From: Nautilus pompilius
Lineage: Eukaryota; Mollusca; Cephalopoda; Nautilida; Nautilidae
Length of the DNA: 64,000 bases
Direction: 5' to 3'
Assembly (NCBI GenBank): GCA_018389105.1
Contig: JACATO010001066.1
Location: 1-64,000, forward strand
Both the position numbers and the translations under genes were made by a program. This document shows positions 2,420 to 61,055 of the stretch, one piece after another. Under the pieces are notes generated by a model. It ran no database searches, was not told where the DNA came from, and saw nothing but the letters and a program-made list of their open reading frames with translations. Position 1 is the first letter of the stretch; each line of letters starts with the position of its first letter.

Positions 2420-2427
2420 TACCGCGA

Positions 2428-3022
2428 GCGTTTACGTGATGTCATCAGAATCAAAGATAGCGGAGCGGCGGGGTTAGGGAGGAGCCGGCGTTTACGTGAT
2501 GTCATCAGAATCAAAGATGGCGGAGCGGCGGGGTTAGGGTGAGCCAGCGTTTACGTGATGTCATCAGAATCAAAGATAGCGGAGCGGCGGGGTTAGGGAG
2601 GAGCCGGCGTTTACGTGATGTCATCAGAATCAAAGATGGCGGAGCGGCGGGGTTAGGGTGAGCCAGCGTTTACGTGATGTCATCAGAATCAAAGATGGCG
2701 GAGCGGCGGGGTTAGGGTGAGCCAGCGTTTACGTGATGTCATCAGAATCAAAGATGGCGGAGCGGCGGGGTTAGGGGGAGCCAGCGCTTACGTGATGACA
2801 TCAGAATCAAAGATGGCGGAGCGGCGGGGTTAGGGGGAGCCAGCGTTTACGTGATGTCATCAGAATCAAAGATGGCGGAGCGGCGGGGTTAGGGGGAGCC
2901 AGCGTTTACGTGATGTCATCAGAATCAAAGATGGCGGAGCGGCGGGGTTAGGGGGAGCCAGCGCTTACGTGATGACATCAGAATCAAAGATGGCGGAGCG
3001 GCGGGGTTAGAGGGGGGAGCCA
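2428..3022. repeat. Ten-unit 59/60-bp tandem array of promoter-like motifs
   Basis: Units start at 2428, 2488, 2547, 2607, 2666, 2725, 2784, 2843, 2902 and 2961. Each holds TTACGTGATGTCATCAG (a CRE/ATF-like site inside the palindrome TGATG-T-CATCA), then ATCAAAGATGGCGGAG (YY1-like AAGATGGCGG), then GGCGGGGTTAGGG. Units 1-2 and 3-4 form a repeated dimer (60+59). Units 7 and 10 carry the variant CTTACGTGATGACATCAG, which only flips the centre of the palindrome. Each unit contains ATG GCG GAG CGG CGG GGT TAG, a possible six-codon frame. The array is CpG-rich and follows a TCTCGCGAGA element. A promoter role is inference. Confidence 0.95.
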
Positions 3023-10169: not shown

Positions 10170-11169
10170 GCCAACAATTTTAAGTTGACAGAATATTTCC
10201 TTATTTTTGTAGGGAAGTGTATTATTGGTCTTGCAAGTTTGTGCTTAACGTCGTTAGATACCGAAACGGGCCAACAATTTTAAGTTGACAGAATATTTCC
10301 TTATTTTTGTAGGGAAGTGTATTATTGGTCTTGCAAGTTTATGCTTAACGTCGTTAGATACCGAAACGGGCCAACAATTTTAAGTTGACAGAATATTTCC
10401 TTATTTTTGTAGGGAAGTGTATTATTGGTCTTGCAAGTTTATGCTTAACGTCGTTAGATACCGAAACGGGCCAACAATTTTAAGTTGACAGAATATTTCC
10501 TTATTTTTGTAGGGAAGTGTATTATTGGTCTTGCAAGTTTATGCTTAACGTCGTTAGATACCCAAACGGGCCAACAATTTTAAGTTGACAGAATATTTCC
10601 TTATTTTTGTAGGGAAGTGTATTATTGGTCTTGCAAGTTTGTGCTTAACGTCGTTAGATACCGAAACGGGCCAACAATTTTAAGTTGACAGAATATTTCC
10701 TTATTTTTGTAGGGAAGTGTATTATTGGTCTTGCAAGTTTATGCTTAACGTCGTTAGATACCGAAACGGGCCAACAATTTTAAGTTGACAGAATATTTCC
10801 TTATTTTTGTAGGGAAGTGTATTATTGGTCTTGCAAGTTTATGCTTAACGTCGTTAGATACCGAAACGGGCCAACAATTTTAAGTTGACAGAATATTTCC
10901 TTATTTTTGTAGGGAAGTGTATTATTGGTCTTGCAAGTTTATGCTTAACGTCGTTAGATACCGAAACGGGCCAACAATTTTAAGTTGACAGAATATTTCC
11001 TTATTTTTGTAGGGAAGTGTATTATTGGTCTTGCAAGTTTGTGCTTAACGTCGTTAGATACCGAAACGGGCCAACAATTTTAAGTTGACAGAATATTTCC
11101 TTATTTTTGTAGGGAAGTGTATTATTGGTCTTGCAAGTTTATGCTTAACGTCGTTAGATACCGAAACGG
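10170..11169. repeat. Satellite: ten units of exactly 100 bp
   Basis: Units start every 100 bp from 10170 to 11070 with GCCAACAATTTTAAGTTGAC and end ATACCGAAACGG. They are almost identical. One diagnostic site (AAGTTT[G/A]TGCTTAACG) reads G,A,A,A,G,A,A,A,G,A across the ten units, a four-unit (400-bp) higher-order period. Unit 4 also has a private C (ATACCCAAACGG). There are no spacers and no open frame. Such exact spacing points to very recent unequal exchange or rolling-circle-type amplification. Confidence 0.97.
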
Positions 11170-12031
11170 GATTTTTAACGTCCTTGTTTAATTCCGAATT
11201 TATTAAAGAAGATTAATTAATTTATTATACTTTTACTGCGCAGTAATACGTTGTTTGGTGTCGGTGAACTTCGAGTAAATTCCACTTCATCTATGAATGG
11301 CAGTAAAGGTCGTATAAAGATAAACTTTACTCGGGGAAAGCGAGAATCTGTCTGCGTGCATTCAATTCTGTTTTTACGCCTTTCCTTTTTATATACCCCC
11401 CCCTAGGCTGAAAGACAAATAATCAGCCATAACTTCTCTTACTTTTCTGTCTATTCTGTAGCCAAAAAATGCGCTCGTTGAAAGCGCAGATGGATGCAAT
11501 TGCTAATTAGAAAAGATGGCTTCTCCCCTCCCCTGAGGTACGGGTCTCCTGGCCAAACCATCCAGGTTTCAAGAGAGGCAGACGATCTGTAGGAAATGGT
11601 GGGGCTAGAACACTGCGCTGGCTCGTAAATACTACCCGCGTATTGTACACGAGTAAGAACGTCTAGCAGTAAAATCACTTCGCGAACATCCGTCGGGGGC
11701 GCTGTCTGCCAACCCCCCCTCCTCTCCGAGTCAGGGAATATTAGAATTATCTTTGCACAGCGCCCTGTCCAAAAAAAGGGAGACCTCGTAAAAGTCAAGA
11801 TGCTGTCGACAACTGCCACAAACCGGCGTAGTTATGGAAGCGGGTGGCCTCGGTTCTAATGCGACTGTAGAAAAAAATATCTGCTTCCTACCTGCCCACC
11901 TCTTCCGTGTTGCTATTCTCAACTTTCGAAAGGCCACCACACCGTTCTCGCAAACTATTCAGGACTTTCACGTGAGTCTACCCCACTTTCCTCCCACTTC
12001 TAGAGCAAGACAGCAAAGTAAACAGACTTAA
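11170..12031. other. No recognised gene
   Basis: Unique-looking sequence between the 100-bp satellite and the hAT element, with moderate CpG. The 122-codon minus frame at 11451-11819 is not recognisable. Confidence 0.5.
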
Positions 12032-12054: not shown

Positions 12055-12781
12055 TGGGCAATTCGATTTTTAAGGGGGGCAATTGAGTACGAATGAAGAG
12101 GTTTGGGTCCAAATTTTCCATTTTTATTTCTTGGATTTTCCATCAGGTAAAGTTTATGTTTCAGATGCTATTTTGATTTTTTTTTAGTGAGAAAGGTCTT
12201 TATTGTATAGTTATTACATAATCACTGTGCCATCGCTCTTCATGCACGTCACACAGAGTGCACGGGGTCATGGAAGAACCTTATTTATTGAATTTGATTT
12301 AGAAATGCGATTCAAAGGGCTTTTGCTAAGTTACCATTATAATAACTGTTTCCTCCGTTTTCTCTCAAAGGAGAGCATTTCCATTTTCTGAAAATTCAGA
12401 GCTCGTAAACAAAGAAGTTGTTTTGGTGTTTTCACGCAAGGTAATTGATACATATTTCTTTGGTTGCTCGTGAATATATTTGATTGTTTAGTATTATGAT
12501 GATGCGAGAAGATACATAAAGTGTCAGAGATGAAAACTTAATAGTCCAAATGCTAATATAATACAACAGTCTTGCCAAATTCATTGTGTATGTGTGTGTG
12601 TGCATATTTTTGTGAGACGATTATCGTCAATACATTCGTGATACAAATTTCTCACACATTCGTAAAAATCTGTTGTACCGCACTCTGTCCTTATATGCTG
12701 TATAAAACGAATCGGCATTGTTTTATTAATTGTTAACTTCATTTCATTTGTGTTTTTACTTGAACGTCTTAAATTCTGAAA

Positions 12782-14560
12782 GTGCATTTCACTTCTAAAG
12801 ATTACTCGTTTATTTCAGTCACAGCCCCTATGCATAAAATGAGTAGTGCAAGCAAAAAGAAAGTTTGTCAGTATTCAGAGGAATTTCCCGCTGCTCAGGA
12901 TGAAAGGTCGGTCACCTTTCTGTCTCTTATGCCAACAATGCTTGACAACGAATCAATGAAACGAGGTCGTCTTGAGGCGCATTTGAAGGCGAAACATAGT
13001 GCGTATGTAAATTCAGATTTGAATTACTTCAAATCTTTAAAGAATAAGTTTGAAAAAAGATCAACAATAAAGTCTCTGTTCACTGCACAAACTGTTACTA
13101 TCAGTCGTACTCTTGAGGCAAGTTATGAAATTTCTTTACTCATTGCTAAATCTGGAAAAAATCATACTATAGGGGAGAATTTAATTAAACCATCAATATC
13201 TGCATTTCTTAAAACAGTTCTGGGAAAAGATGACAAAGATGTTAAAGCCATGCCACTCAGTAACGACACTGTTAGGAGAAGAATAGATGAAATGAGTGAA
13301 GATATTGAAACACAACTTGTTGAAAAGCTGAAATCAAGAAAATTCTCAGTACAAATGGATGAATCAACTGTGAGAGGCAGTGAGGCCTTATTGCTAACTT
13401 ATGTAAGATATATTGATAAAGGTGAATTTGTTGAAGAAATGTTATTCTGCAAATCTTTAGATACCACTGCTGATATATATAATAAACTAAAATACTACTT
13501 AGATATCAATAATATACCAAAAAACCATAACATCTTGTGCAGCTGATGGTTCTCCTGTTATGATGGGCAAGAAAAATGGCTGCTTAAAATTGATGAAAGA
13601 TGAGAATCCGGAGATGCTTCTTGTGCACAGTGTTATTCATAGAGAGAACTTAGTGTCGAAAAATATTTCTCCTGTACTTAATGAGGTACTGAAATCAGTT
13701 ATAAAATCTATCAATGCTATCAAAACTAATGCCAAATGTGAGCGTCTTTTCGAGAAATTTTGTGAAGATAACAATTCAGACTATGTGAGACTTTTACTTC
13801 ACACTGAGGTACGGTGGCTTTCGAAAGGGAATTGTTTGAAAAGATTCATGGAACTGTTTGATGAACTTAGTGGCTTTCTAAGTGACAAGCCTGAAATGAA
13901 GCACCTGCTAACCGTTGATGGAAAAGCGTTTTTGAGTTATTTAGCAGATATTTTCGAAAAACTGAATGTGTTGAATAAACAACTTCAAGGAACAAATAAA
14001 ACGCTTGTTGATGCAAAGGCGAAGATATTTGGCTTTATTTCATTTATAGAGTTATGCCAAAAAAATATTTCTGACAAAAATTTTGACCATTTTCATTGGC
14101 TAAAAAATGTGAGCCGACTGAGGCTGCAGTGCTTGTCATTGTGGATCATCTGAAAATATTGGCCTCTGATTTTAAAGAAAGATTTTCTGATTTAAAACAG
14201 ATTAATTTTCCATCGTGGGTGATGCAGCCAGTGCTTGTGGATTTATCTGATGTTTCAGTGCAGTACCAAGAACTCCTCTCGGAAATAAAAAATGATGAGT
14301 CAGTTAAAACTTTATTCAACATAAAAGGAGCGATGGCATGGCTTTGTGATGAGACAGAAACTAAATACCCAAATTCAACTAGCTTTGCAAGGAAACTGTT
14401 GTTACCGTTTCCATCTTCATATTTAGCTGAATGTGGCTTTAGCGTTGTAAATGATTTGCTACTGAAGAAAAGAAATTCACTGGATATCAGTAAACGAGGA
14501 GATTTGAGACTAAAGCTGACTAAATTAGTGCCTAATATAAAATCTCTGCAGCAGGCATGA
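12782..14560 (+). pseudogene. hAT transposase with BED-type N-terminus, frameshifted
   Basis: This encoded the transposase that cuts and re-inserts the element. Three open pieces remain: 12782-13546, about 13530-14153, and 14096-14560. The breaks lie near 13530 and in the A-run at about 14101-14106. A further shift near 12945 puts the BED-finger cysteines (FCLLCQQC, 12918-12941) in a different frame from the following NESMKRGRLEAHLKAKH. Visible hAT landmarks are VQMDEST (first catalytic Asp), CAADGSPVMMG (second Asp), LLVHSVIHRENL (the usual Cys of the C-x2-H motif is Ser here), EVRWLSKGNCLKRF, and the C-terminal dimerisation block SSYLAECGFSVVNDLL. It resembles the transposases from which ZBED5/FAM200-type genes derive. 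It is inactive as it stands. Confidence 0.9.
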
Positions 14561-30657: not shown

Positions 30658-30777
30658 TTCATCTCTCCCAAACGAACAAACAAAAAATTCTTTCAGTTTC
30701 TTTGCACCAGATATTGAGGCTATCACTTGTTTTTTTTTTCCTCATGAAGCAGTAATATTGAAGCAAGGGGGTTTGTT

Positions 30778-30799
30778 GCTGCTGCTGCTGCTGCTGCTG
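30778..30799 (-). repeat. (CAG)7 run in the putative 3'UTR
   Basis: The plus strand reads (GCT)7G; the gene sense is (CAG)7C flanked by CAA triplets. It lies about 780 nt after the stop codon. CAG hairpins can also be bound by muscleblind proteins, so this is a second triplet tract in the same transcript. It may simply be a microsatellite. Confidence 0.6.
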
Positions 30800-31579: not shown

Positions 31580-31692
31580 TTAGTTCCCCAAGGTGGTGGG
31601 GATATGATAATACTTGCACATTTGGCGCCTGCACTTTCCTTTGACTGCGTCACGACACACTGTCACCTTGCCGTCCGTCACTTCAACATACT
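31580..31692 (-). CDS. mbl: Muscleblind terminal coding exon E: fourth CCCH finger and stop
   Basis: The last coding exon begins after the acceptor ccacatctgtctccag and completes the split codon (G|AG). It reads EYVEVTDGKVTVCRDAVKGK, then CRRQMCKYYHIP, then TTLGN and TAA at 31582-31580. The finger is CX7CX4CX3H (C204, C212, C217, H221). The inter-finger stretch EYVEVTDGKVT has the same layout as the V.VD...VTV bridge between fingers 1 and 2 of exon A, so exons D and E together form a proper tandem CCCH module. Only seven residues follow the last zinc ligand. The acceptor, phase and stop agree with exon D. Without transcripts I cannot exclude an alternative donor that extends the protein. Confidence 0.85.
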
Positions 31693-35250: not shown

Positions 35251-35335
35251 CCTCCAATAGATGCACGAACTTGCATTGTGGCCTGTTACATTGGCCTGAT
35301 TTAAAATCGCGGCATACTGGGATGGTGTCCAGCAA
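35251..35335 (-). CDS. mbl: Muscleblind exon D: third CCCH zinc finger
   Basis: This 85-nt exon encodes 28 residues plus one base. It starts after ctcccttacag and ends at a consensus GAGG|gtaagt donor. The product is LLDTIP, then VCRDFKSGQCNRPQCKFVH, then LLE. The zinc finger is CX7CX4CX3H (C171, C179, C184, H188 of the joined protein), the same spacing as finger 2 of exon A, with the muscleblind-like VCRDF start. In phase 0 it follows exon C. In the frame created when exon C is skipped, it meets TAA at 35303-35301, 50 nt before its end. Vertebrate MBNL proteins have no finger at this C-terminal place, so this is the start of an extra finger pair or of the pair known from long isoforms in some invertebrates. 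Confidence 0.85.
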
Positions 35336-38191
35336 CTGTAAGGGAGAATAAAATTAGGTAAGTAATGTGAGTTTCAAGAAGAAAAAAGGCTAATAATACC
35401 TATTTAAAAATTATGATATTACCAGAAAAAAAGAAGAGGGAGCAATGAAATTTTGTGGTAATTCTAAGTCAGTTCAGGTAAGATTTTAATAACTGAAACT
35501 ATATAATACCAAATACAATTATTTCTACATTGGGTTAATTAACATTTCTAGCTTTAACCCTTTTAATGAGTGAAGTGTTCAATGGAAAATAACAAAGATA
35601 ACTTTTGAATAATGCTAACTGCTTCTGTCTCTCTCTCTCTCTCTCTTAGAAGATTAAGACTAAGCTAAAAAACTTTTTTTAAAATTACCAGAAATTGTAT
35701 TTCTGTGGATTAAAAATTTGAAATGAAAAGAGCTAAGAAGTTTCTTAAAGGGGGAAATCTGAGAAATATAAACGTTCTGAGGACTAAATTAGTAGGTTAT
35801 ATCTCAATTTAGTCTTAGAAGTGCAGGACTGATGACAGTGCACATCATCAACATTTAAAACAAAATTATTCAAGGAAACCATTTAAAAATACAAAAATTA
35901 AAGGTTTCTTCACGTCCATCATTTATTGCGTTTGCTTCCAAAAAAATAATGCAGTGTTGTTAAAAAATACTGTTAAAAATATTGATCTTTGTCAGGTTTT
36001 TGCCATTTTTAGTTCTCTCTCATGCTAAGTGCAATGATGCTAGCACTAAATTCTTCACAGTCCTGTGGCTTGTTTATCAGCCATTTCCATATTACTAACC
36101 TGAACAAAAAATTCAAAGCTATTTAGATTTTCTTTCATAATTATATCATCAGCAGAGCACTATCTACTCACATACTTGTCCTGGCTAAACTAGGTTAGAA
36201 TTCTCATCAATAACACTATTATTCAGATAATGATCAATTGCAGATGCCCCCAACTTTTCTTTCCCTTACATTCAGTCTATTACATAAACTGTTGTGTGTC
36301 TGCACTAAATAGAAGTTAGAAAACAAACAAAAGCTTTAAGATATATACTTAATACAGAGTCTGGGCTAAGAATTAATGTTAAATCAAAAATCTGCAATAG
36401 CATAATATGCATGCATGTGTGAAGAAAATTACATCAGGAAAGATTAGATTACCTATATTAAACAGAAAAAGCCATTAATTTCTTATCCTAACTGCCAACG
36501 AAAGACAAGTTAAGGAAAGCAACCATGAATGAATGTGTGATTTTTCTACACCGTCTTGTTACAAATTTTAAAATAATTTAAAAAATAATCAAAACTGAAG
36601 GTTTATGTAACACTTCAAATAAAATCAGGAAAACCTTTTAAAAAAATGAATGTTCTAACAGTCAAATCAAAACATTAATGATTCAAAAAAAAACAAAAAA
36701 AAACAAAACAACCCATAACCAGCAAATATAGGCAACCTAAGTTTGACTGGTAAATTCCCTTTTTTGCTCCTGCTAACAATTTTAATTTTATTTGATGTTA
36801 AACTTTGCTGCAATTATTTCAAAGTTTACATTAGAGACGACGATGACAAAGGACCTTTTCTTCTGACAATATGAAAGACATCTTTCTGATAACATAGGAT
36901 TGTTATTATTATGCATGTTTCCACATACAATTTAAATTAATAGTGTACCTAAGCGAGACAAAGATGCCAACAATCTAGAGTATAGCAGATGACACACAAC
37001 TGGCAGCCACCAGAAGCCATCACTCATGATTTACACAAGGTCCCCAGGTTTTGGGAAGTTGCATCACCCATTAAATTCTTGATCTGATCAAAAACAAACT
37101 GTACCATGTGCCAGCAATGCTAAAAGAATGCTTCCCAATAAATAGTACTGCTCAGGCTTAATTGTTTTCATTCTAAAAGTGTTAAAATTAACAATTAAAC
37201 AGCAAAGTCAAATCTGTTTCAACGCACCACCTCTGAATGCCAAGAGAAGAGAACTTCAGAACCAGTGCACAATGGATTCTGAAATACGGATGTTCGTAGC
37301 AGACCACTTATTTCTGGTGGAGTCCACCTGTAGCCAATTCTCACAAGTAAATTGAAAAAAAGCCCATTCCCATCCTAAATACTATATTAACGATACAAGA
37401 TGGCAGGAGAAAACTTGTTTTTTCTACAACTAAAAAGAAAGATATACTGGTTACATGTTTATTTATTTGAAATATTTTACAGAAAAGCAAACACAATAAA
37501 CAGTTAAAAATGCTGGCACCAATTAAAGGATATTTATCTGCATTATAATACACGACTAAAAGCTGTTAGTTTAGTTATGAATACCTTTAAAATAGATTTG
37601 AGCATAAAAAAATTAATCCCTGCCACCATCCAAAACCATAGTTACTTCATTAGTTTTCAAAAAGCAGGTGGGGTAAACCTTTATTTACAAACTTTTAAAG
37701 TCTTCAAGGGCAAATGAGTCCCCTAATACATTCAAATTAAATCTGCTGCTTGCTTTTAATGGAGGGGGTCATCTGGTAAAAAGGTTGAATATTTGAATGT
37801 GTCATGCTGAGTTTCTTTCATTGAGGCCTTAAATGTAAAAAACAAATGAAAACCAAGGGTAATCAAGAGCAGGCTATGTGGGAGGGAGGGAAAGAAAAGA
37901 GAATAGATGGCACTGAAGATCCTCCTGCTACTAGGTCTGTCTGTCTGTCTTAGTAGACATTAAGCATGCAGAAAGTTAAATGAAGTCTCTCTCTGCACAG
38001 CCAAGGGTATAACAGCTGTTGCTTTAGGAATTTAGCAAATACAGAAAATTAATGTGAATATGTTAAACAAGGTGCATACTTGAGATTTGCTACATCTTCT
38101 AATGCCTACCAGTGTTTTGAGAGAGAAAGAGATGAGGGGGTAGGGAAACAGAGATGAGATGAGAGATATGACAAGGGAGGGGGAGAGAGAT

Positions 38192-38223
<32 letters not shown>

Positions 38224-39481
38224 ATGAAAATTCTATAATTTTTCTTTTCTTTTGGAGGGTAAAGGTAAATAAGCAGCTGGCATTTTGGGAATTTTTACAT
38301 CCCTTTCACTGATGCACAGGTCAATATAACCCACTTAAATACTGCTTTTGTCTTACAAGTCTGGTTTGCCCTGCCTCAGGTTACCAGTGAGAGGGACAGA
38401 GACAACAGACAGGCCCATGCCCTTGATATATCACAGATTAACTTCCTGATCGGGATTATGACTAAAGGCAATTGCTAAATCTCAATTTCAGAACCAGCGT
38501 ATACAAATATTCATCTGAATCCATTTTGTTAAAAACATATATTGGCTTCTGACTATCAGCTGACTAGTTAGAATTATCATTCAGCAGCCATCAGAAACAC
38601 CTGCTACAATACTAAAGTTAAATGACGCAATTTTCCACCCCCCCCTTTAAATAAGCTCCTTATATTCTGACATGCCAAGTTCCCTTAAAGACAAAAAAAC
38701 CCCACACCCCAACCAACAGAAAAATTAAAAAAAAAAATCTCTCCCATTTTATCGGTATTAGAAACTGCACACAATTCTCTACCCCCTGACCCTACTCTGT
38801 TAGCGCTAGTGGTGATGGCCGGATACAATTACAGCGATTATATTTTCAACGGGGCTTCATTTAAATGACCCTAGTCCATTTACATGATGAACCCCACCAT
38901 TGCAATTATTCTTTTACAGGTGCCACTATTATCTAATTATCTTTTTTTATATACTTTAACATCTTTGCACAGAGACCATTTGGCCAATTTTAATTTGTTT
39001 CTGTATGATTTTCCCCCCACCATTAGAGTTCCACCACTGGCAATGCTGTTTACGCTCTTTGTACAATATGTCTCATGCTCCAGATATAGGATCATCATCA
39101 TCAAAGTTTACAATATTTAATTTAGAACACAGTCCTTGACACAGTTTACTTCTCCCAAATAATTAGAATTTTTAAAGCTCTAAAATACTAAATCATTTCC
39201 AAATTTAACTAAGAACATGTTACCACAAGTCCGTTTGCATCATAAACAATGACCAAAATCTGATTTCAAGTCTGTATTGTTAAATGCTAAAACCATTCCT
39301 AAGCTTCAGTTTTAGATAAGGCCAAGCTTACTTCAAAACAAGTGTGCAATGCAGCTGCTGAAAATTAACACCGGCTAATGTTCTTAAATCTGGGTTCCAT
39401 ATTAACTACAATAAGTACAGAAAAGAAAATATAGTTTGCACAAAGAGACAAGAAGCAGTTGTAAAAGCAGTATAGCACTAC
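35336..39481 (-). other. mbl: 4.1-kb intron between exons C and D
   Basis: AT-rich intron. The only marked feature is a purine-rich tract at 38118-38224 (plus strand), ending in about 32 nt of uninterrupted purines, mostly GA. A short (TC)n run lies at 35629-35647. No further exon was recognised. Confidence 0.6.
38118..38224. repeat. Purine-rich GA tract in an intron
   Basis: About 107 nt on the plus strand is nearly all purine, with a pure stretch of about 32 nt (mostly GA) at its right end. Such tracts can form triplex DNA. In the gene sense it is a pyrimidine tract, but it is more than 1.2 kb from the nearest annotated splice site. Confidence 0.7.
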
Positions 39482-39579
39482 CTGGTTGTTCTCATCAAAG
39501 TAATTAACACTAGCTGTATTAGTAGGGACTGAGGTTGAGGCTGGCATCGGTGGAACTGCAGTGTTCAGAACCGTCGGTA
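39482..39579 (-). CDS. mbl: Muscleblind exon C: 98-nt frame-controlling linker exon
   Basis: This is a 98-nt exon. With the split codon it encodes L, then PTVLNTAVPPMPASTSVPTN and ending NYFDENNQ, a P/S/T-rich linker. The acceptor is gatgtgcag, preceded by a pyrimidine tract (ccctccttccttc), and the donor is CAG|gtagtg. It begins in phase 1 and ends in phase 0, fitting exon B before it and exon D after it. Its length is not a multiple of three, so skipping it shifts the frame and stops translation in exon D. Skipping exons B and C together (246 nt) keeps the frame. A (CUG)6 run lies 42 nt upstream of its start in the sense strand. The exon is inferred from splice sites and phase, without a strong homology match in this short segment. 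Confidence 0.75.
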
Positions 39580-42500
39580 CTGCACATCAGTGGTTGGCAT
39601 GGTAGCAGAAGGAAGGAGGGCCAGCAGCAGCAGCAGCAGCGATGTGCGGATGAAGCACAGGTAGACATGCAGAGTTGTACAAGTGCGCAGGAGAGGAGTA
39701 TGAAAGAGATGAACAGCAAATCTGTTGTTGGTTGTTAAATAACAGTAAAATTTAAAAAAAAAAAAAATTAAACAAGCATGATCAGTTGCTGGGTGATAGG
39801 TAGTCCACCATGTAAGTAACACCACTGCAAAGCATCAGACACAAGCAACATTCATACAAATCCATATCCTGGACATTTTCGGTTTTAGCCAGCAAATATT
39901 TAGTTCACTATAATGTACTCTTATACACGTCATGTAAAACAACAACAAAAAAACCTACCACCATCAGACGGGCAGTCATGCAGCTAAATAGAACAAAGCT
40001 TAGTTACGATGAAGCAAAGATCACTTCATCACCCTTCTTCTTCCACTCTTACTGCCAAAATATTTTTTGAAAAAGCTCAGCAGGTCAATGAAGCCAATGT
40101 TACTTGTTTAATAAAGCACATTCATTAATTACAAAGCAGATACAAACGTGGTTATGGTAATTTTTCTATTAAGTTAAAAGCTGAGATGCTAATGAATCAA
40201 GTGCAGGAAAAGTTACAATACAGCAAAGTGAGAGTTTCCTATCCTTTAAAGTTAGCACTGTTTGAGTGACTTTATTCCACTAATGTACTTTATTACAGAT
40301 ATTTTTTTTAGAAAGTAGTTCAGGTTGTTTGCCTGTTATTTTTTGTAGAGTTAACAAGGATGTAAGTAGCCGGTTGGGGAAAAGAAAGGTACATATCATC
40401 TAGAATGATTGGTATGCTATGAATTAAAAATTTCCAAGTGCTGTTTAACTTTCTCCAGCAGGTGGAACAAAGTCTAGCTATGAAGTTTGGTGTTTTCTCT
40501 CCTGTACGAACAACTGGTGGGGCCAGCTCTCATTTATCACCACCATAATATACCAACTGGCAGTAGTCATTCATTTGTTATGCTGAAGCGATAACAGACG
40601 GCAAGGTTGAATCCAAATGGCAGAAAAGTGCTGTTGTTGCTGTTTCTTTAGTTCAGATGCTGAATAAGATCTTTCTTTTCACTGCTTGAATATCAAATTT
40701 TGTCATCACAGTAGGTGCAAAAAACACACACCAGGCAAGTCTATGCTTGCTGTTATGGAAGGAAGAAGGGGGTGGGGGATAAGTCCCCACCTTCAGATTA
40801 TACATGCTTTGTAAACATGGGTTTTTAATAAAAGATGGAATGAAAACTGATGCATACAAATACAAAATTAGTCCAAGGAACAAATAAAAAAGAAATAAAG
40901 AGAAAGCAACAAATGTAGCTAAGACTTACACCTTTGTTAACCCATGTATGAACACTAAACAGTGGTCTACCCTTATAAAGACTTTATTTCCCCCTACTGC
41001 ATTACTAGACCTGTGAAGTCGTGTGCCAAAAGTGTAACTTATACTAACTATTGCCTAAAAGAAAATAAATAATCTGCGAAGGTTATGGAAAAAAGAAACA
41101 CACCCCCCCCGACACACAGATTTGAAGTGTATCCTTTAAGTAATATTACAGAATGCTTATTATTTTTTCTTGCTGAGTTGTATGTGTGTGTATAAAATCC
41201 AGATTCTCAAAAAATTTCTTGCAACTGCTGACATGAGAAAGTTGGTGGGTGGGAGAGAGAGGCAGCACGACTGTCTACACAGAGAAGAAAAAAAAAAAAG
41301 CACGGGAATTAGCACACATCCCTGTCCCACACTTGCTTTGTTATTACACAAGACAATGTATATATTTTTAAAAGTTGCTAATTAAAAGATGAGTATGAGT
41401 GAATATCCACTAAAGTCTACGCAGGTGAGCATCTCTGGGTAGCTTCAGTGTTTATACACCGCATCTACTTTCACCGAAAAATGCTTCTAAAATCTGTTAC
41501 TCTACAGGTCAACAACACAAATTTAAATGTTTATATATTTGTCGTAGCAAATAATTTTTTTTATTTTTGCGCTGATATGCTTGCCCAAGATGGAAATTAA
41601 TTCAATTTTAACCTTTAGAGGGCTGATTCCCACACACACACACAAATATTATTAAAACAAGCACAGAAAGATCAGACACATTGTTGAATTTTTAAATAAA
41701 ATCTATCTTTATAGAAAACACAAAAATAGCACCAGCATAGTCACATTTTAACATACAGAATATTTATCAGAAAGAGTTAAATTGTGCTATACTTCTCACA
41801 GAACCTAGCCCCTCTCCAAGACTTTACTGAACTTAGAATCTTCTAATGCAAGCAACTGAAATCCTGTGTGTGAAAAGACGAGAATCTTTTCGGTTTACAT
41901 GCTCAGTTTTGTAATCAACTCAGTTCCCTCTCCTTTGAAAAGTAAAAAAAAAAAAAAAGAACTTCTAAAAATGTATTATTTTTTTAAAACTCTGGATTAG
42001 TGATGACCTACAGTGGTTATTCTCAAACATGTTTAATTATTGCCCTCCGCTTTCATTAAAACAATAACTATTTAAAGATTCAACTCAATATTGCTTCTAA
42101 GCTTAATATTTTCTACAATTTAAATTCCAAGCAGTACTGTAAACCATGATGCTGCAAACAAAAACAACATAATTCCATCAAATCGTTCGTTGTGTTGCTA
42201 GTTTGAACTTCATTAATTTTTTCTTTCCACTGGAAGCTTTTTGTCAGGGACCCAGGAAAAGTGTCAGATGGGAAGTTGTTTTTTGTAGAGGAATTTAAAG
42301 AATCTAATATTTGCTGTTTAATTATAATGGCCTGCTCATGTGCACATGCCGACTGCAGCTATTTACCATGTGTTTGTTGCAGACTTAAAATTCCCAGAAT
42401 TATATTATTTCCCCATCTTTCTCTCCAACCCTTTTCTTTTGCATTATTCCATTTCAATGCTTTATTACAGTTTCTTTGTTTTGTGGTGTAAATTTTGATC

Positions 42501-50197: not shown

Positions 50198-53100
50198 AAA
50201 AAAATCCTAAAAAGCAGAAGATCAAGAGCCATTTTGTCATGTGACTGTGCAAATAATTCTTCTTTAAGCAGACTACAGCTACATGCAAAGCATGATGGGA
50301 TATAGTACCAGAACGAGATCGTCTGCAGGGTCACGAGGTCGCTTCTTGCCCGTCAAGACCTCAACCACTTGCGGCTAATTAGTATGCAGAGCACATGATG
50401 GCGATTTGGCCAATGAAATGGCAGCATGGCAGGGATGGCGGCACATGACAACAGCAAGCAGCAAGGCATGATGGGTAATGAAAATAAAAGAAAGGCACCA
50501 TTTTGGTAAAAAACTTCAAACCAACATGCATTATCAACCATTAATTATATACCAAGAAGCTAGACATCATGCCTTGTAACAAAGAAACTATAGGAGTTTT
50601 GGTTTTTTGTAGTTTTCTTTTTTAATGAAAAAAAAAAGAATAATATACAGAAAAAAAAAATACTGCACTTATGCTGCAAAGGTGACTAATTAGTAAAAAG
50701 GTGCTGAGAGTAAGCTCAAATTTTCTGATAACGGTGAGATCTGAAATAAGTGCTTTGATTTTGCACTGGAGGCTAACATCAAAATACACACACACACATA
50801 CACACACAAAGGTCATTAAAAGTCAAAGGTCATATTCAGGGTAGTATATTAAAAAATCAAGAGAGATTGTTCAAGGCATCTAAGCTCTATGATCCACCAA
50901 CTCTTTACATTATCAGTGCATACGCAAAAAGTACTAGGAAGTTCAAACAAAACCTGGCTTCATTTAAACTGTCCCTAATACATGAAGTAATTGGACAACT
51001 GGAAACCAGGCAGACATTGACCCTAAATGGGCCTATATACCTGTTGCCATCAATCAGGTTGTAGTGTACAAGCAATGTGCATTATGGCTGCCAATGTAGG
51101 GTCCCTTATCTCTTTGGATTTATTGGCAGATGACATCAAGTTACTGATACATTCAAATACTGTTTTCTAATAATAGTGCTTTTTCCCCCTTCAAATACGA
51201 GAATAAATGATCATGCTTTCTGAGATGTAAACTAATCATTATATGTCCCTTACCCACATGCTTTACTACTACCTTGACAAAAATTTACAGTAATATATAA
51301 AGGAATAACAAGAATATAGTTCTATGCAACTTGGATATTTACTTATATTTTTAAAATGTTTCCTTACTGATATTTCAATGACTAGTTAGTTTAAATTTCA
51401 AGCTTTGCTCAAAGCAGGTAAGGTTGATGAACAGTTGCCAATTTAGCCCACCTGTTGACATGTCAGTCAAGGATCATTGTACTACTGTACAGACATTTTG
51501 CATTTTCACAGAAATTGCACACTCGATGTGGACTATTCCATAAATTGTCATCATGAATCCACTTTATCATAAACGCTATCCAGCATCCACTTCAATGATT
51601 AGAGATGCTGAATTGCTTACTTTTTGGCAAACCCTGTGTAAAGATATTTCTTAGCAGTGACCTAGGAAATAAGCAAATTAACTAGGCATAGTTGTGGTGC
51701 TCATGGTGCAAGCCACTCAGGAGTTGTGTGTGCTTGTTACTCAAGATCACAATCACATGCACATGACCATGTTATAACCGGCAAGTCAGTCAAACCAAAT
51801 CTGAACTGAACCAGAGTTAGAAAAAAAAAAAAGAATGAATGAATTCAACAAAGCCAAAATAATCAGCAGCATAACTGGTTCATGATTTGGCTGTTAACCC
51901 CTCTCTGATCTTAAGTTTGTACTATCACTACTAACATGACAAAAAAGATCCTGGAAAATGTTATAGTGATCCAATGCAATAATATTCACAGAAGGATGAG
52001 TGTGGGTTTGTTTCCTTAGTTGGTTATGTTTACTGTTTTGTAAAAAGTTTGTGATTCACTGACGGCTAAAAATATGCATTGTTTGGCACACTGCTTAACA
52101 ATAGTAAAACAGACCAGATTGCGTATCTGAACCAGAGGGGACAATCTCATGTGGTTTGACTTCCTGTTTATGCCACTTCTCAAACAGTGTGCATTTCAAT
52201 TTTACTTCAGGTTCAGAAATACTTACATCACACAATATAAACTTAACAAGGCCCCAGATAGTATTTCCTATTTATCAGGATGTTCCTAAGTTACTGACTG
52301 AACTTGCACTTTACTTTTGATTTAAAAAAAAAATAAAAGAGAAAATCCAAGGAGCTCATAACGACAGAGTAAAATGTTCTCAATAAGTTCTTCAATCTGA
52401 CCGATGGACTCTCACCCATTTGAGTGTCAACATTTCTCAAAATTCTTTTAAAAGCTAAGTGCGATAAGACACCAATGACATCATAACCAAAAATTACTTT
52501 TACTGAATCAATGAAAAAAAAAAAAAAAAAACAAAGGGGGGGGGGGAAGGAGAAATTACTAACAACACTGATAAAGTTTGGCTAGCTTGTTGTCATAAAC
52601 ATTCCAGAATTAAACAAGCACAACCCACCCTTTTCCATCACTAATAAAATTCATGAAGCAGTTACCGACCTGTAATAAGATGGTTCCATGAGAGAGAGAG
52701 AGAGACAAAGTTTTCAATAATACTTGTGGGTATCTCACTTTCTTTGGTGTTGTTCAGGGTGAGGGTTCCAAAATGTTATTTTTGAAGGTCTAGAGTCTGT
52801 TTTAAAAAAACACCATGGCCTAACTAATGTAACAGCAGCAAAGTTTAAACATCAAAGGGTTAAAATTGTTTTTAACTTCTCCCCCAAAAATAATGGCACT
52901 AAGAAAATAGGTGGGATTGGAAGATGACTAGAGTTTATACACCACCTTTTCTTCTGCATTAGATACAGAAGCAGTGAGTGTGCTGGGATTCTTGAGAGGA
53001 AGAGATTAAAAATTTTAAGGCGCATATATATATTTTGATGTTTTGATTTCTAATCCCAAAGATTCACCCACAAAAGTATTTAACACTAATCATGTAATCA

Positions 53101-60812: not shown

Positions 60813-61055
60813 CAGAGCTTGAGTCTGCGCGGTGATTGCGTTAGCTCGTTGCTGAGCAGCTTTAATCTGCGCCTGCAGGTGCGGTAGAGGGTGAAAGTAT
60901 CTACACGAATCCCGTGTACATGTCCCCTTTATGTAATCCATACACACCGTTACGCAGTTGTCGGCTATGTCGACTGTTACACTTTCAGGTGGGTGAGCGT
61001 AGCGACATTCATTAGGCTGCCGCGTGCAAGTACCTCTCTGAAACTCACGACATAC
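60813..61055 (-). CDS. mbl: Muscleblind exon A: tandem CCCH zinc-finger pair
   Basis: This 243-nt, phase-0 exon encodes 81 residues. It starts after a pyrimidine-rich acceptor ending cccttttcag and ends at a gtaggc donor. Finger 1 is [10 protein letters not shown] followed by C17 and H21 (CX7CX6CX3H). Finger 2 is [10 protein letters not shown] followed by C51 and H55 (CX7CX4CX3H). This is the muscleblind spacing signature, and the fingers bind single-stranded GC steps in pre-mRNA. The stretch TVCMDYIKG and the tail [11 protein letters not shown] match the second (ZnF3/4) pair of vertebrate MBNL better than the first pair, so a ZnF1/2 exon may exist further upstream, outside the window. All eight zinc ligands are present. 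The family call is very secure. Which vertebrate pair it equals is inference. Confidence 0.95.

What the first reader, a model, noticed from the sequence alone, without database searches (positions are those of the whole stretch)
35251..39640. Possible muscleblind self-regulated switch: (CUG)6 beside a frame-controlling exon that decides whether the C-terminal zinc fingers are made
Seen: in gene sense, G(CTG)6 ends 42 nt before the 98-nt exon C. Skipping exon C joins exon B (one base left over) to exon D in another frame, and TAA follows at 35303-35301, after 11 altered codons. This removes the whole second CCCH pair. The stop is 50 nt before the D/E junction, at the edge of the usual NMD distance. 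Skipping B and C together (246 nt) restores the frame. Known: MBNL binds CUG/YGCY, binding upstream of an exon usually causes skipping, and vertebrate MBNL genes control their own splicing. Inference: high protein levels would shift output to a two-finger or unstable form.
Basis: partly seen in the sequence, partly recalled or inferred. Interest (0 to 1): 0.85.

Follow-up and report, generated by a model that had tools for sequence, protein, structure and literature searches.

The report
Muscleblind frame-switch exon, third zinc-finger pair
In what looks like a cephalopod muscleblind gene, including or skipping one 98-base exon changes the reading frame of the next exon, which then encodes either part of an extra pair of RNA-binding zinc fingers or a short protein tail conserved in several invertebrate phyla; the DNA in front of that exon looks suited to control by the protein itself, which remains to be tested.

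Summary
The sequence observation holds: G(CTG)6, 42 nt, a 98-nt exon C, a frameshift into exon D when C is skipped, TAA at 35303-35301, 50 nt before the D/E junction. The interpretation needs three corrections. (1) Exon A is muscleblind's second CCCH pair (TZF2); D+E are a third pair (TZF3), found in molluscs, arthropods, hemichordates, amphioxus and lamprey, in no jawed-vertebrate row retrieved. (2) Skipping C need not give junk: the shifted reading of D, FAGHHPSMPRF*, is a conserved C-terminus in molluscs, a brachiopod, a nemertean and chelicerates (43 of 150 retrieved proteins; mean pairwise identity 7.6/10 against 3.6-3.9 expected from the zinc-finger frame alone). D looks dual-coding. Self-regulation of C is plausible, not shown. 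Only A2 and C combine weak acceptors, 137/140-nt AG-free zones, 12/10 upstream YGCY and nearby TGCATG. Against it, C's YGCY count equals local dinucleotide shuffles (p 0.51), and conservation of the CUG tract could not be tested. New variant of a known kind.

The parts
60813..61055 (-). Exon A (243 nt, phase 0-0): CCCH pair [10 protein letters not shown]...CRYFH, counterpart of TZF2. Absent from some relatives' isoforms.
   Evidence: 82% identical to the second pair of Haliotis P0025 against 49% to its first; top PDB matches 2e5s (deposited as OTTHUMP00000018578), then 5u6l and 3d2q, MBNL1 (that these are ZF3/4 constructs is recalled); PF22628 1e-27
50375..50524 (-). 150 nt upstream of A2: 137-nt AG-free zone, 12 YGCY, weak polypyrimidine tract (0.56 pyrimidine); a TGCATG lies just outside at -156
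   Evidence: local shuffle fraction 0.0005 of 2000
50309..50374 (-).
   Evidence: present in Haliotis isoform P0025, absent from P0018; KR exon described in PMC10773944
49417..49564 (-). Exon B (148 nt, ends phase 1): second KR motif PKRVAVADSKSG...QQQPYIPVT
   Evidence: 48 of 48 aligned residues identical to P0124
39622..39639 (-). (CTG)6 tract, 42 nt before exon C
39580..39729 (-). 150 nt upstream of C: 140-nt AG-free zone, 10 YGCY (6 from the CTG tract), weak polypyrimidine tract (0.56 pyrimidine), TGCATG at -92
   Evidence: local shuffle fraction 0.51
39482..39579 (-). Exon C (98 nt, phase 1 to 0), frame-controlling cassette: LPTVLNTAVPPMPASTSVPTNTASVNYFDENNQ; its ending is recognisable in most relatives aligned
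35251..35335 (-). Exon D (85 nt), read in two frames: frame 1 LLDTIPVCRDFKSGQCNRPQCKFVHLLE (first finger of TZF3), frame 2 (C skipped) FAGHHPSMPRF*
35301..35303 (-). TAA stop used when C is skipped, 50 nt before the D/E junction
31580..31692 (-). Exon E (to stop): EYVEVTDGKVTVCRDAVKGKCRRQMCKYYHIPTTLGN*, second finger of TZF3
   Evidence: PF22628 2.3e-18 for D+E

Best explanation
This is the 3' half of a muscleblind (MBNL) gene of a mollusc, probably a cephalopod. The 98-nt cassette exon C acts as a two-way frame switch. With C included, exons D and E are read as a third CCCH tandem zinc finger (TZF3). With C skipped, the same bases of exon D are read one frame over as a short conserved C-terminal tail (FAGHHPSMPRF*). 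Exon D is therefore dual-coding, and both products are made for use. Steps supported here: exon structure, both reading frames and their conservation at the protein level, and both isoform classes in annotated relatives. Step inferred: the muscleblind protein, perhaps with Rbfox, binds the CUG/YGCY-rich stretch between a distant branch point and the weak 3' splice site of C, as described for human MBNL1 exon 5. High protein would thus cause skipping and shift output from the TZF3 form to the short-tail form with up to four fingers, in parallel with the KR exon A2 that controls localisation.
For: Exon map and frames. TZF3 homology to MBNL fingers; TZF3 in molluscs, arthropods, hemichordates, amphioxus and lamprey. 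In a predicted model of an Ixodes relative the TZF3 segment has the same strand-helix pattern as TZF2, at block pLDDT 75-88 (best of five models, mean pLDDT 70, pTM 0.43). Tail conserved: 17 distinct tails in 43 of 150 proteins. Mean pairwise identity 7.56 of 10 over 17 lineages against null means 3.6-3.9 (largest simulated 4.83), fixing the zinc-finger frame and randomising synonymous codons; six tails, one per major group, give 8.07. One DNA string can encode both products in 4 of 5 protostome cases tried (window; Patella, two species; Littorina, if the upstream base is G; spiders, two genera) and in vertebrate MBNL3 of Thamnophis; the fifth, a tick TZF3 with a Limulus tail, did not fit. Regulatory layout: of 30 AG-free runs of 110 nt or more on both strands, the two with the most YGCY (12 and 10) end exactly at the acceptors of A2 and C. 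B, D and E have pyrimidine-rich acceptors, 48-52-nt AG-free zones and 0-1 YGCY; A has 118 nt and 4. TGCATG lies near A2 (-156, +22, +266) and C (-92) and within 300 nt of no other exon. Literature: YGCY clusters and a distant branch site precede the autoregulated MBNL1 exon 5 (PMC5082313, section 8 and passages); MBNL binding upstream of an exon promotes its exclusion (PMC4176163, passages); MBL-1 and FOX-1 both inhibit the C. elegans KR exon (PMC10773944, passages and section 6).
Against: No RNA data for this species. Upstream of C the YGCY count equals local dinucleotide shuffles (p 0.51), and predicted RNA structure is no better than shuffled (z 0.21). Conservation of the CUG tract was untestable: no relatives' genomic DNA was in reach. 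No cephalopod protein with TZF3 was seen; full-length forms would exceed the 399-residue limit, but forms without TZF2 would have fitted and were not among the 120 of 2050 hits listed. Cephalopod relatives carry an extra stretch between B and the tail (P0124, P0048) that was not found in the window. The tail test infers DNA from protein and treats lineages as independent. Published comparisons seen name only TZF1 and TZF2 (PMC10773944, section 6) or one and two finger pairs in planarians (PMC4978528, passages). The counterpart of exon C is not among the autoregulated exons in the passages read.
Confidence: 0.6

Rival explanations
1. The frame switch and dual coding are real, but exon C is controlled by other factors (CELF, Rbfox, tissue programmes); the CUG tract is a microsatellite with no special role.
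For: C's YGCY density equals local shuffles. The window is rich in simple repeats and holds another CTG/CAG-type run at 30777-30797. Six of the ten YGCY are the tract itself. TGCATG at -92 could suffice.
Against: The AG-free zone, weak acceptor and YGCY load of C resemble those of A2, whose counterparts in human and nematode are autoregulated (PMC5082313, PMC10773944). By rough arithmetic, one such tract falls within 150 nt upstream of one of six exons by chance about 1.4% of the time.
Confidence: 0.3
2. One reading: skipping C lowers output by frameshift and NMD, giving an unstable or two-finger protein (unproductive autoregulation).
For: TAA lies upstream of an exon junction, and unproductive splicing is common among RNA-binding proteins (recalled).
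Against: The shifted peptide and its stop are conserved over four phyla. The stop is 50 nt from the junction, not clearly beyond the usual 50-55 nt (recalled rule). Annotated proteins use it, and unnamed records of 1.2-3 kb contig length encode it across several exons, which I take to be transcripts. TZF2 (exon A) lies upstream and is unaffected. NMD itself was not tested.
Confidence: 0.06
3. The tail's conservation is a by-product of zinc-finger coding; only TZF3 is functional and C-skipping is splicing noise.
For: The second and third bases of each tail codon are fixed by the TZF3 frame.
Against: Conservation far exceeds the synonymous null. TZF3 of Patella caerulea reads LR where others read LL, while the tail of P. 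vulgata still reads AG; TZF3 of Mytilus galloprovincialis has T-to-S and V-to-A, while M. coruscus keeps the tail's length and stop (Mytilus worked by hand, and each pair is two species).
Confidence: 0.04

Closest known systems
Human MBNL1/MBNL2 exon 5 and C. elegans mbl-1 exon 7 (KR/NLS exon autoregulation)
   Same: Cassette exon in the muscleblind gene; in human MBNL1 preceded by YGCY clusters and a distant branch site; more protein gives more skipping. The window's A2 is the direct counterpart by its KR motif, and exon C shows a similar upstream layout (PMC5082313, PMC10773944).
   Different: That exon changes localisation, and its window counterpart is in frame. Exon C is 98 nt, changes frame, and decides between TZF3 and a conserved tail.
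Alternative C-terminal exons of vertebrate MBNL genes (exon encoding VPMMHGATP...ANQ)
   Same: Same position and a similar ending as exon C; the two MBNL3 ends of Thamnophis can be encoded by one DNA string in two frames, so its use appears to change the next frame too (inferred from proteins).
   Different: In the jawed-vertebrate rows retrieved the downstream exon does not encode TZF3. Lamprey P0033 still has it.
[quoted passage not shown]
   Same: Splicing decides how many finger pairs are made. MblF's second pair, 32% identical to human TZF2, may be the TZF3 counterpart (inference, sequence not examined).
   Different: The passages read describe no dual-coding exon or frame switch, and treat TZF2 as the optional pair.

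Membership tests
Muscleblind/MBNL | Tandem CCCH fingers of the MBNL type | tested here: met
   PF22628 1e-27 for exon A and 2.3e-18 for D+E; muscleblind chains lead the PDB matches of both
Muscleblind/MBNL | Two KR motifs on adjacent exons, the first on a cassette exon | tested here: met
   A2 GKKRPRDP and B PKRVAV on adjacent exons; A2 present or absent in Haliotis isoforms
Muscleblind/MBNL | N-terminal TZF1 | not testable with these tools
   Not found in the window; relatives such as P0018 and P0025 carry it
Autoregulated MBNL exon (MBNL1 exon 5 type), for exon A2 | YGCY cluster just upstream of the exon | tested here: met
   12 in 150 nt against 1.5 on average; local shuffle fraction 0.0005
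Autoregulated MBNL exon (MBNL1 exon 5 type), for exon C | YGCY cluster just upstream of the exon | tested here: inconclusive
   10 in 150 nt against 1.5 on average, but not above its local shuffle, fraction 0.51
Autoregulated MBNL exon (MBNL1 exon 5 type), for exon C | Distant branch point | tested here: inconclusive
   140-nt AG-free zone fits it; branch point not mapped
Autoregulated MBNL exon (MBNL1 exon 5 type), for exon C | Skipping rises with the gene's own protein | not testable with these tools
   Needs RNA or minigene data
Dual-coding exon | Both frames open, used and conserved beyond what one frame forces on the other | tested here: met
   inferred at protein level and in relatives, no relatives' DNA and no RNA of this species
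NMD-linked poison event | Stop clearly more than 50-55 nt before the last junction (recalled rule) and a non-conserved product | tested here: inconclusive
   Stop is 50 nt before the junction, at the border, and the product is conserved; decay itself not tested

The most novel reading that the evidence does not exclude
The ancestral bilaterian muscleblind gene carried a third finger pair whose making was set by a frame-switch exon under feedback from the protein itself, over a dual-coding exon. Protostomes keep both outputs, while jawed vertebrates lost the third pair but kept the frame switch. High muscleblind would then change the protein's own RNA-binding valency from six fingers to four.
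Probability: 0.35. Interest if true: 0.75.

Novelty: new variant of a known kind. Interest (0 to 1): 0.6.

Why it matters
Muscleblind is the protein titrated away in myotonic dystrophy, and its known feedback exon controls localisation. Here a second exon with a similar upstream design may control how many RNA-binding finger pairs are made, through an exon read in two frames. A third finger pair seen from molluscs to lamprey changes the picture of muscleblind as a two- or four-finger family. The loop can be tested in a minigene or in squid, snail or spider RNA.

Tried and rejected
Rejected: exon A as the first CCCH pair; C-skipping as mere NMD junk (decay not tested); a special RNA structure at the CUG tract (z 0.21); the cephalopod YSSTKLNE stretch hidden in the B-D interval (no convincing match); Rfam families at gathering score and tRNAs (none); Pfam hits in the 12.8-14.6 kb ORFs (none at E 0.01).

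Not possible: conservation of the CUG tract in relatives (no eukaryotic genomic collection in reach); more protein searches (3 of 3 used). Literature searches for a third finger pair, dual coding, or molluscan, squid or amphioxus muscleblind listed no paper whose title or abstract start describes them; one listed paper (PMC4978528) was opened for passages. One search was badly framed: none of the 20 papers listed held the word muscleblind.
Full report
What is there. The window is animal DNA (36% GC) with the 3' part of a muscleblind gene on the minus strand. Six coding exons were placed by homology and splice signals: A 61055-60813, A2 50374-50309, B 49564-49417, C 39579-39482, D 35335-35251, E 31692-31580. 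TZF1 was not found in the window. The host is probably a cephalopod: exon B is identical over 48 residues to P0124, an unnamed record that shares a near-duplicated YSSTKLNE stretch with named Octopus bimaculoides P0048. That stretch was not found in the window.

Check of the finding. The stated distances and frames are right. The lost fingers are not the second pair: exon A matches the second pair of Haliotis P0025 at 82% and its first at 49%, and D+E are a further pair. Exon A2, carrying the first KR motif, was missed.

The third finger pair. Of 150 proteins retrieved, 34 carry TZF3 by my patterns: molluscs, chelicerates, crustaceans, an insect, hemichordates, amphioxus and lamprey; no jawed-vertebrate row matched. 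Only 120 of 2050 hits were listed. One search aligns the window with 12 TZF3 proteins and 2 jawed-vertebrate ones. The end of exon C (SVxYFDENxQ in molluscs, SVPFAATATANQ in Thamnophis) is recognisable in 11 of the 12 (not in Littorina, a record marked low quality; weakest in lamprey) and in both jawed vertebrates, so exon C probably has a vertebrate counterpart.

The second frame of exon D. Skipping C reads D as FAGHHPSMPRF*. Of the 150 proteins, 43 end in this motif, with 17 distinct versions. Named sources are bivalves, gastropods, Octopus, Lingula, the nemertean Lineus and chelicerates. By my pattern the tail follows exon B directly in 20 of 43; in 23 another short stretch intervenes or the pattern failed. 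The 120 rows listed, whose query held the TZF3 form and not the tail, contain 24 tail and 23 TZF3 proteins. Of the other 73, one spider row (P0038) appears to run on past exon C and the rest look vertebrate by name or tail, so I saw no protostome skip form ending otherwise. With the TZF3 frame fixed and synonymous codons random, the chance of an open frame to the same stop is 0.26-0.29, and the expected mean pairwise identity of 17 tails is 3.6-3.9 of 10 (largest simulated 4.83). Observed is 7.56, or 8.07 for six tails, one per major group. The test treats lineages as independent and works from protein, not DNA. One DNA string can encode both products in 4 of 5 protostome cases: the window, Patella (two species), spiders (two genera), and Littorina if the upstream base is G. 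A tick TZF3 paired with a Limulus tail did not fit; Limulus' own TZF3 was not seen. In vertebrate MBNL3 the two ends of Thamnophis (P0052, P0044) fit, as did a mixed-species pair.

How it may be regulated. A2 and C stand apart from the other exons: pyrimidine content 0.56 at their acceptors against 0.81-0.94; AG-free zones of 137 and 140 nt against 48, 52, 52 and 118; YGCY counts of 12 and 10 against 0, 0, 1 and 4. Among 30 AG-free runs of at least 110 nt on both strands, the two with most YGCY end at these two acceptors; the next two (9 each) end in or beside the 2.4-3.0 kb tandem repeat. The thresholds were chosen after seeing the data. TGCATG, the recalled Rbfox site, lies at -156, +22 and +266 of A2 and -92 of C, and within 300 nt of no other exon; the gene strand holds 27. 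In human, YGCY clusters and a distant branch site precede the autoregulated exon 5 (PMC5082313). In C. elegans, MBL-1 and FOX-1 both inhibit inclusion of the KR exon (PMC10773944). The same layout at C makes feedback likely in my judgement, but local dinucleotide shuffles give C's YGCY count half of the time and RNA folding is ordinary.

Verdict. The frame switch and dual coding rest on several comparisons at protein level. The self-regulation step is an inference by analogy. TZF3 may be partly known as Drosophila MblF (PMC3315501; sequence not compared). My ten literature searches listed no paper that I could see describing the third pair beyond that, or the dual-coding exon; most listed papers were seen only as titles and abstract starts.

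Noticed in passing
50309-50524 (minus): One of the densest YGCY stretches of the gene strand, and the only one with 12 outside the 59-bp tandem repeat, lies upstream of the KR exon A2, with a TGCATG 22 nt downstream of A2: the layout expected of the known muscleblind feedback exon.
   Followed up: yes
P0047, P0150 (ticks); P0124, P0012: Relatives' records also lack TZF2 (exon A) or appear to join A straight to D, so finger number looks modular: TZF1 alone, 1+2, 1+3 or 1+2+3.
   Followed up: partly
P0044/P0052 (Thamnophis MBNL3): The last exon of this vertebrate MBNL3 appears to be read in two frames (ISQLSVDELN... and DLPVIGR*), encodable by one DNA string.
   Followed up: partly
P0124, P0048: Cephalopod relatives carry a repeated stretch between exon B and the tail (YSSTKLNEIQPYFT twice in P0124; second copy shorter in Octopus), perhaps a duplicated 42-nt exon; not found in the window.
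   Followed up: partly
10170-11170: Ten copies of a 100-bp tandem repeat at 99% match.
   Followed up: no
2427-3015: About ten copies of a 59-bp GC-rich tandem repeat that produces other YGCY-dense windows.
   Followed up: no
12773-14557 (plus): Broken long ORFs that look like a hAT-type transposase or its domesticated kin (recalled likeness); no Pfam hit at E 0.01.
   Followed up: partly
30777-30797: A (TGC)7 run on the plus strand (GCA in gene sense) downstream of exon E, the only other CTG/CAG-type run of 4 or more units.
   Followed up: no
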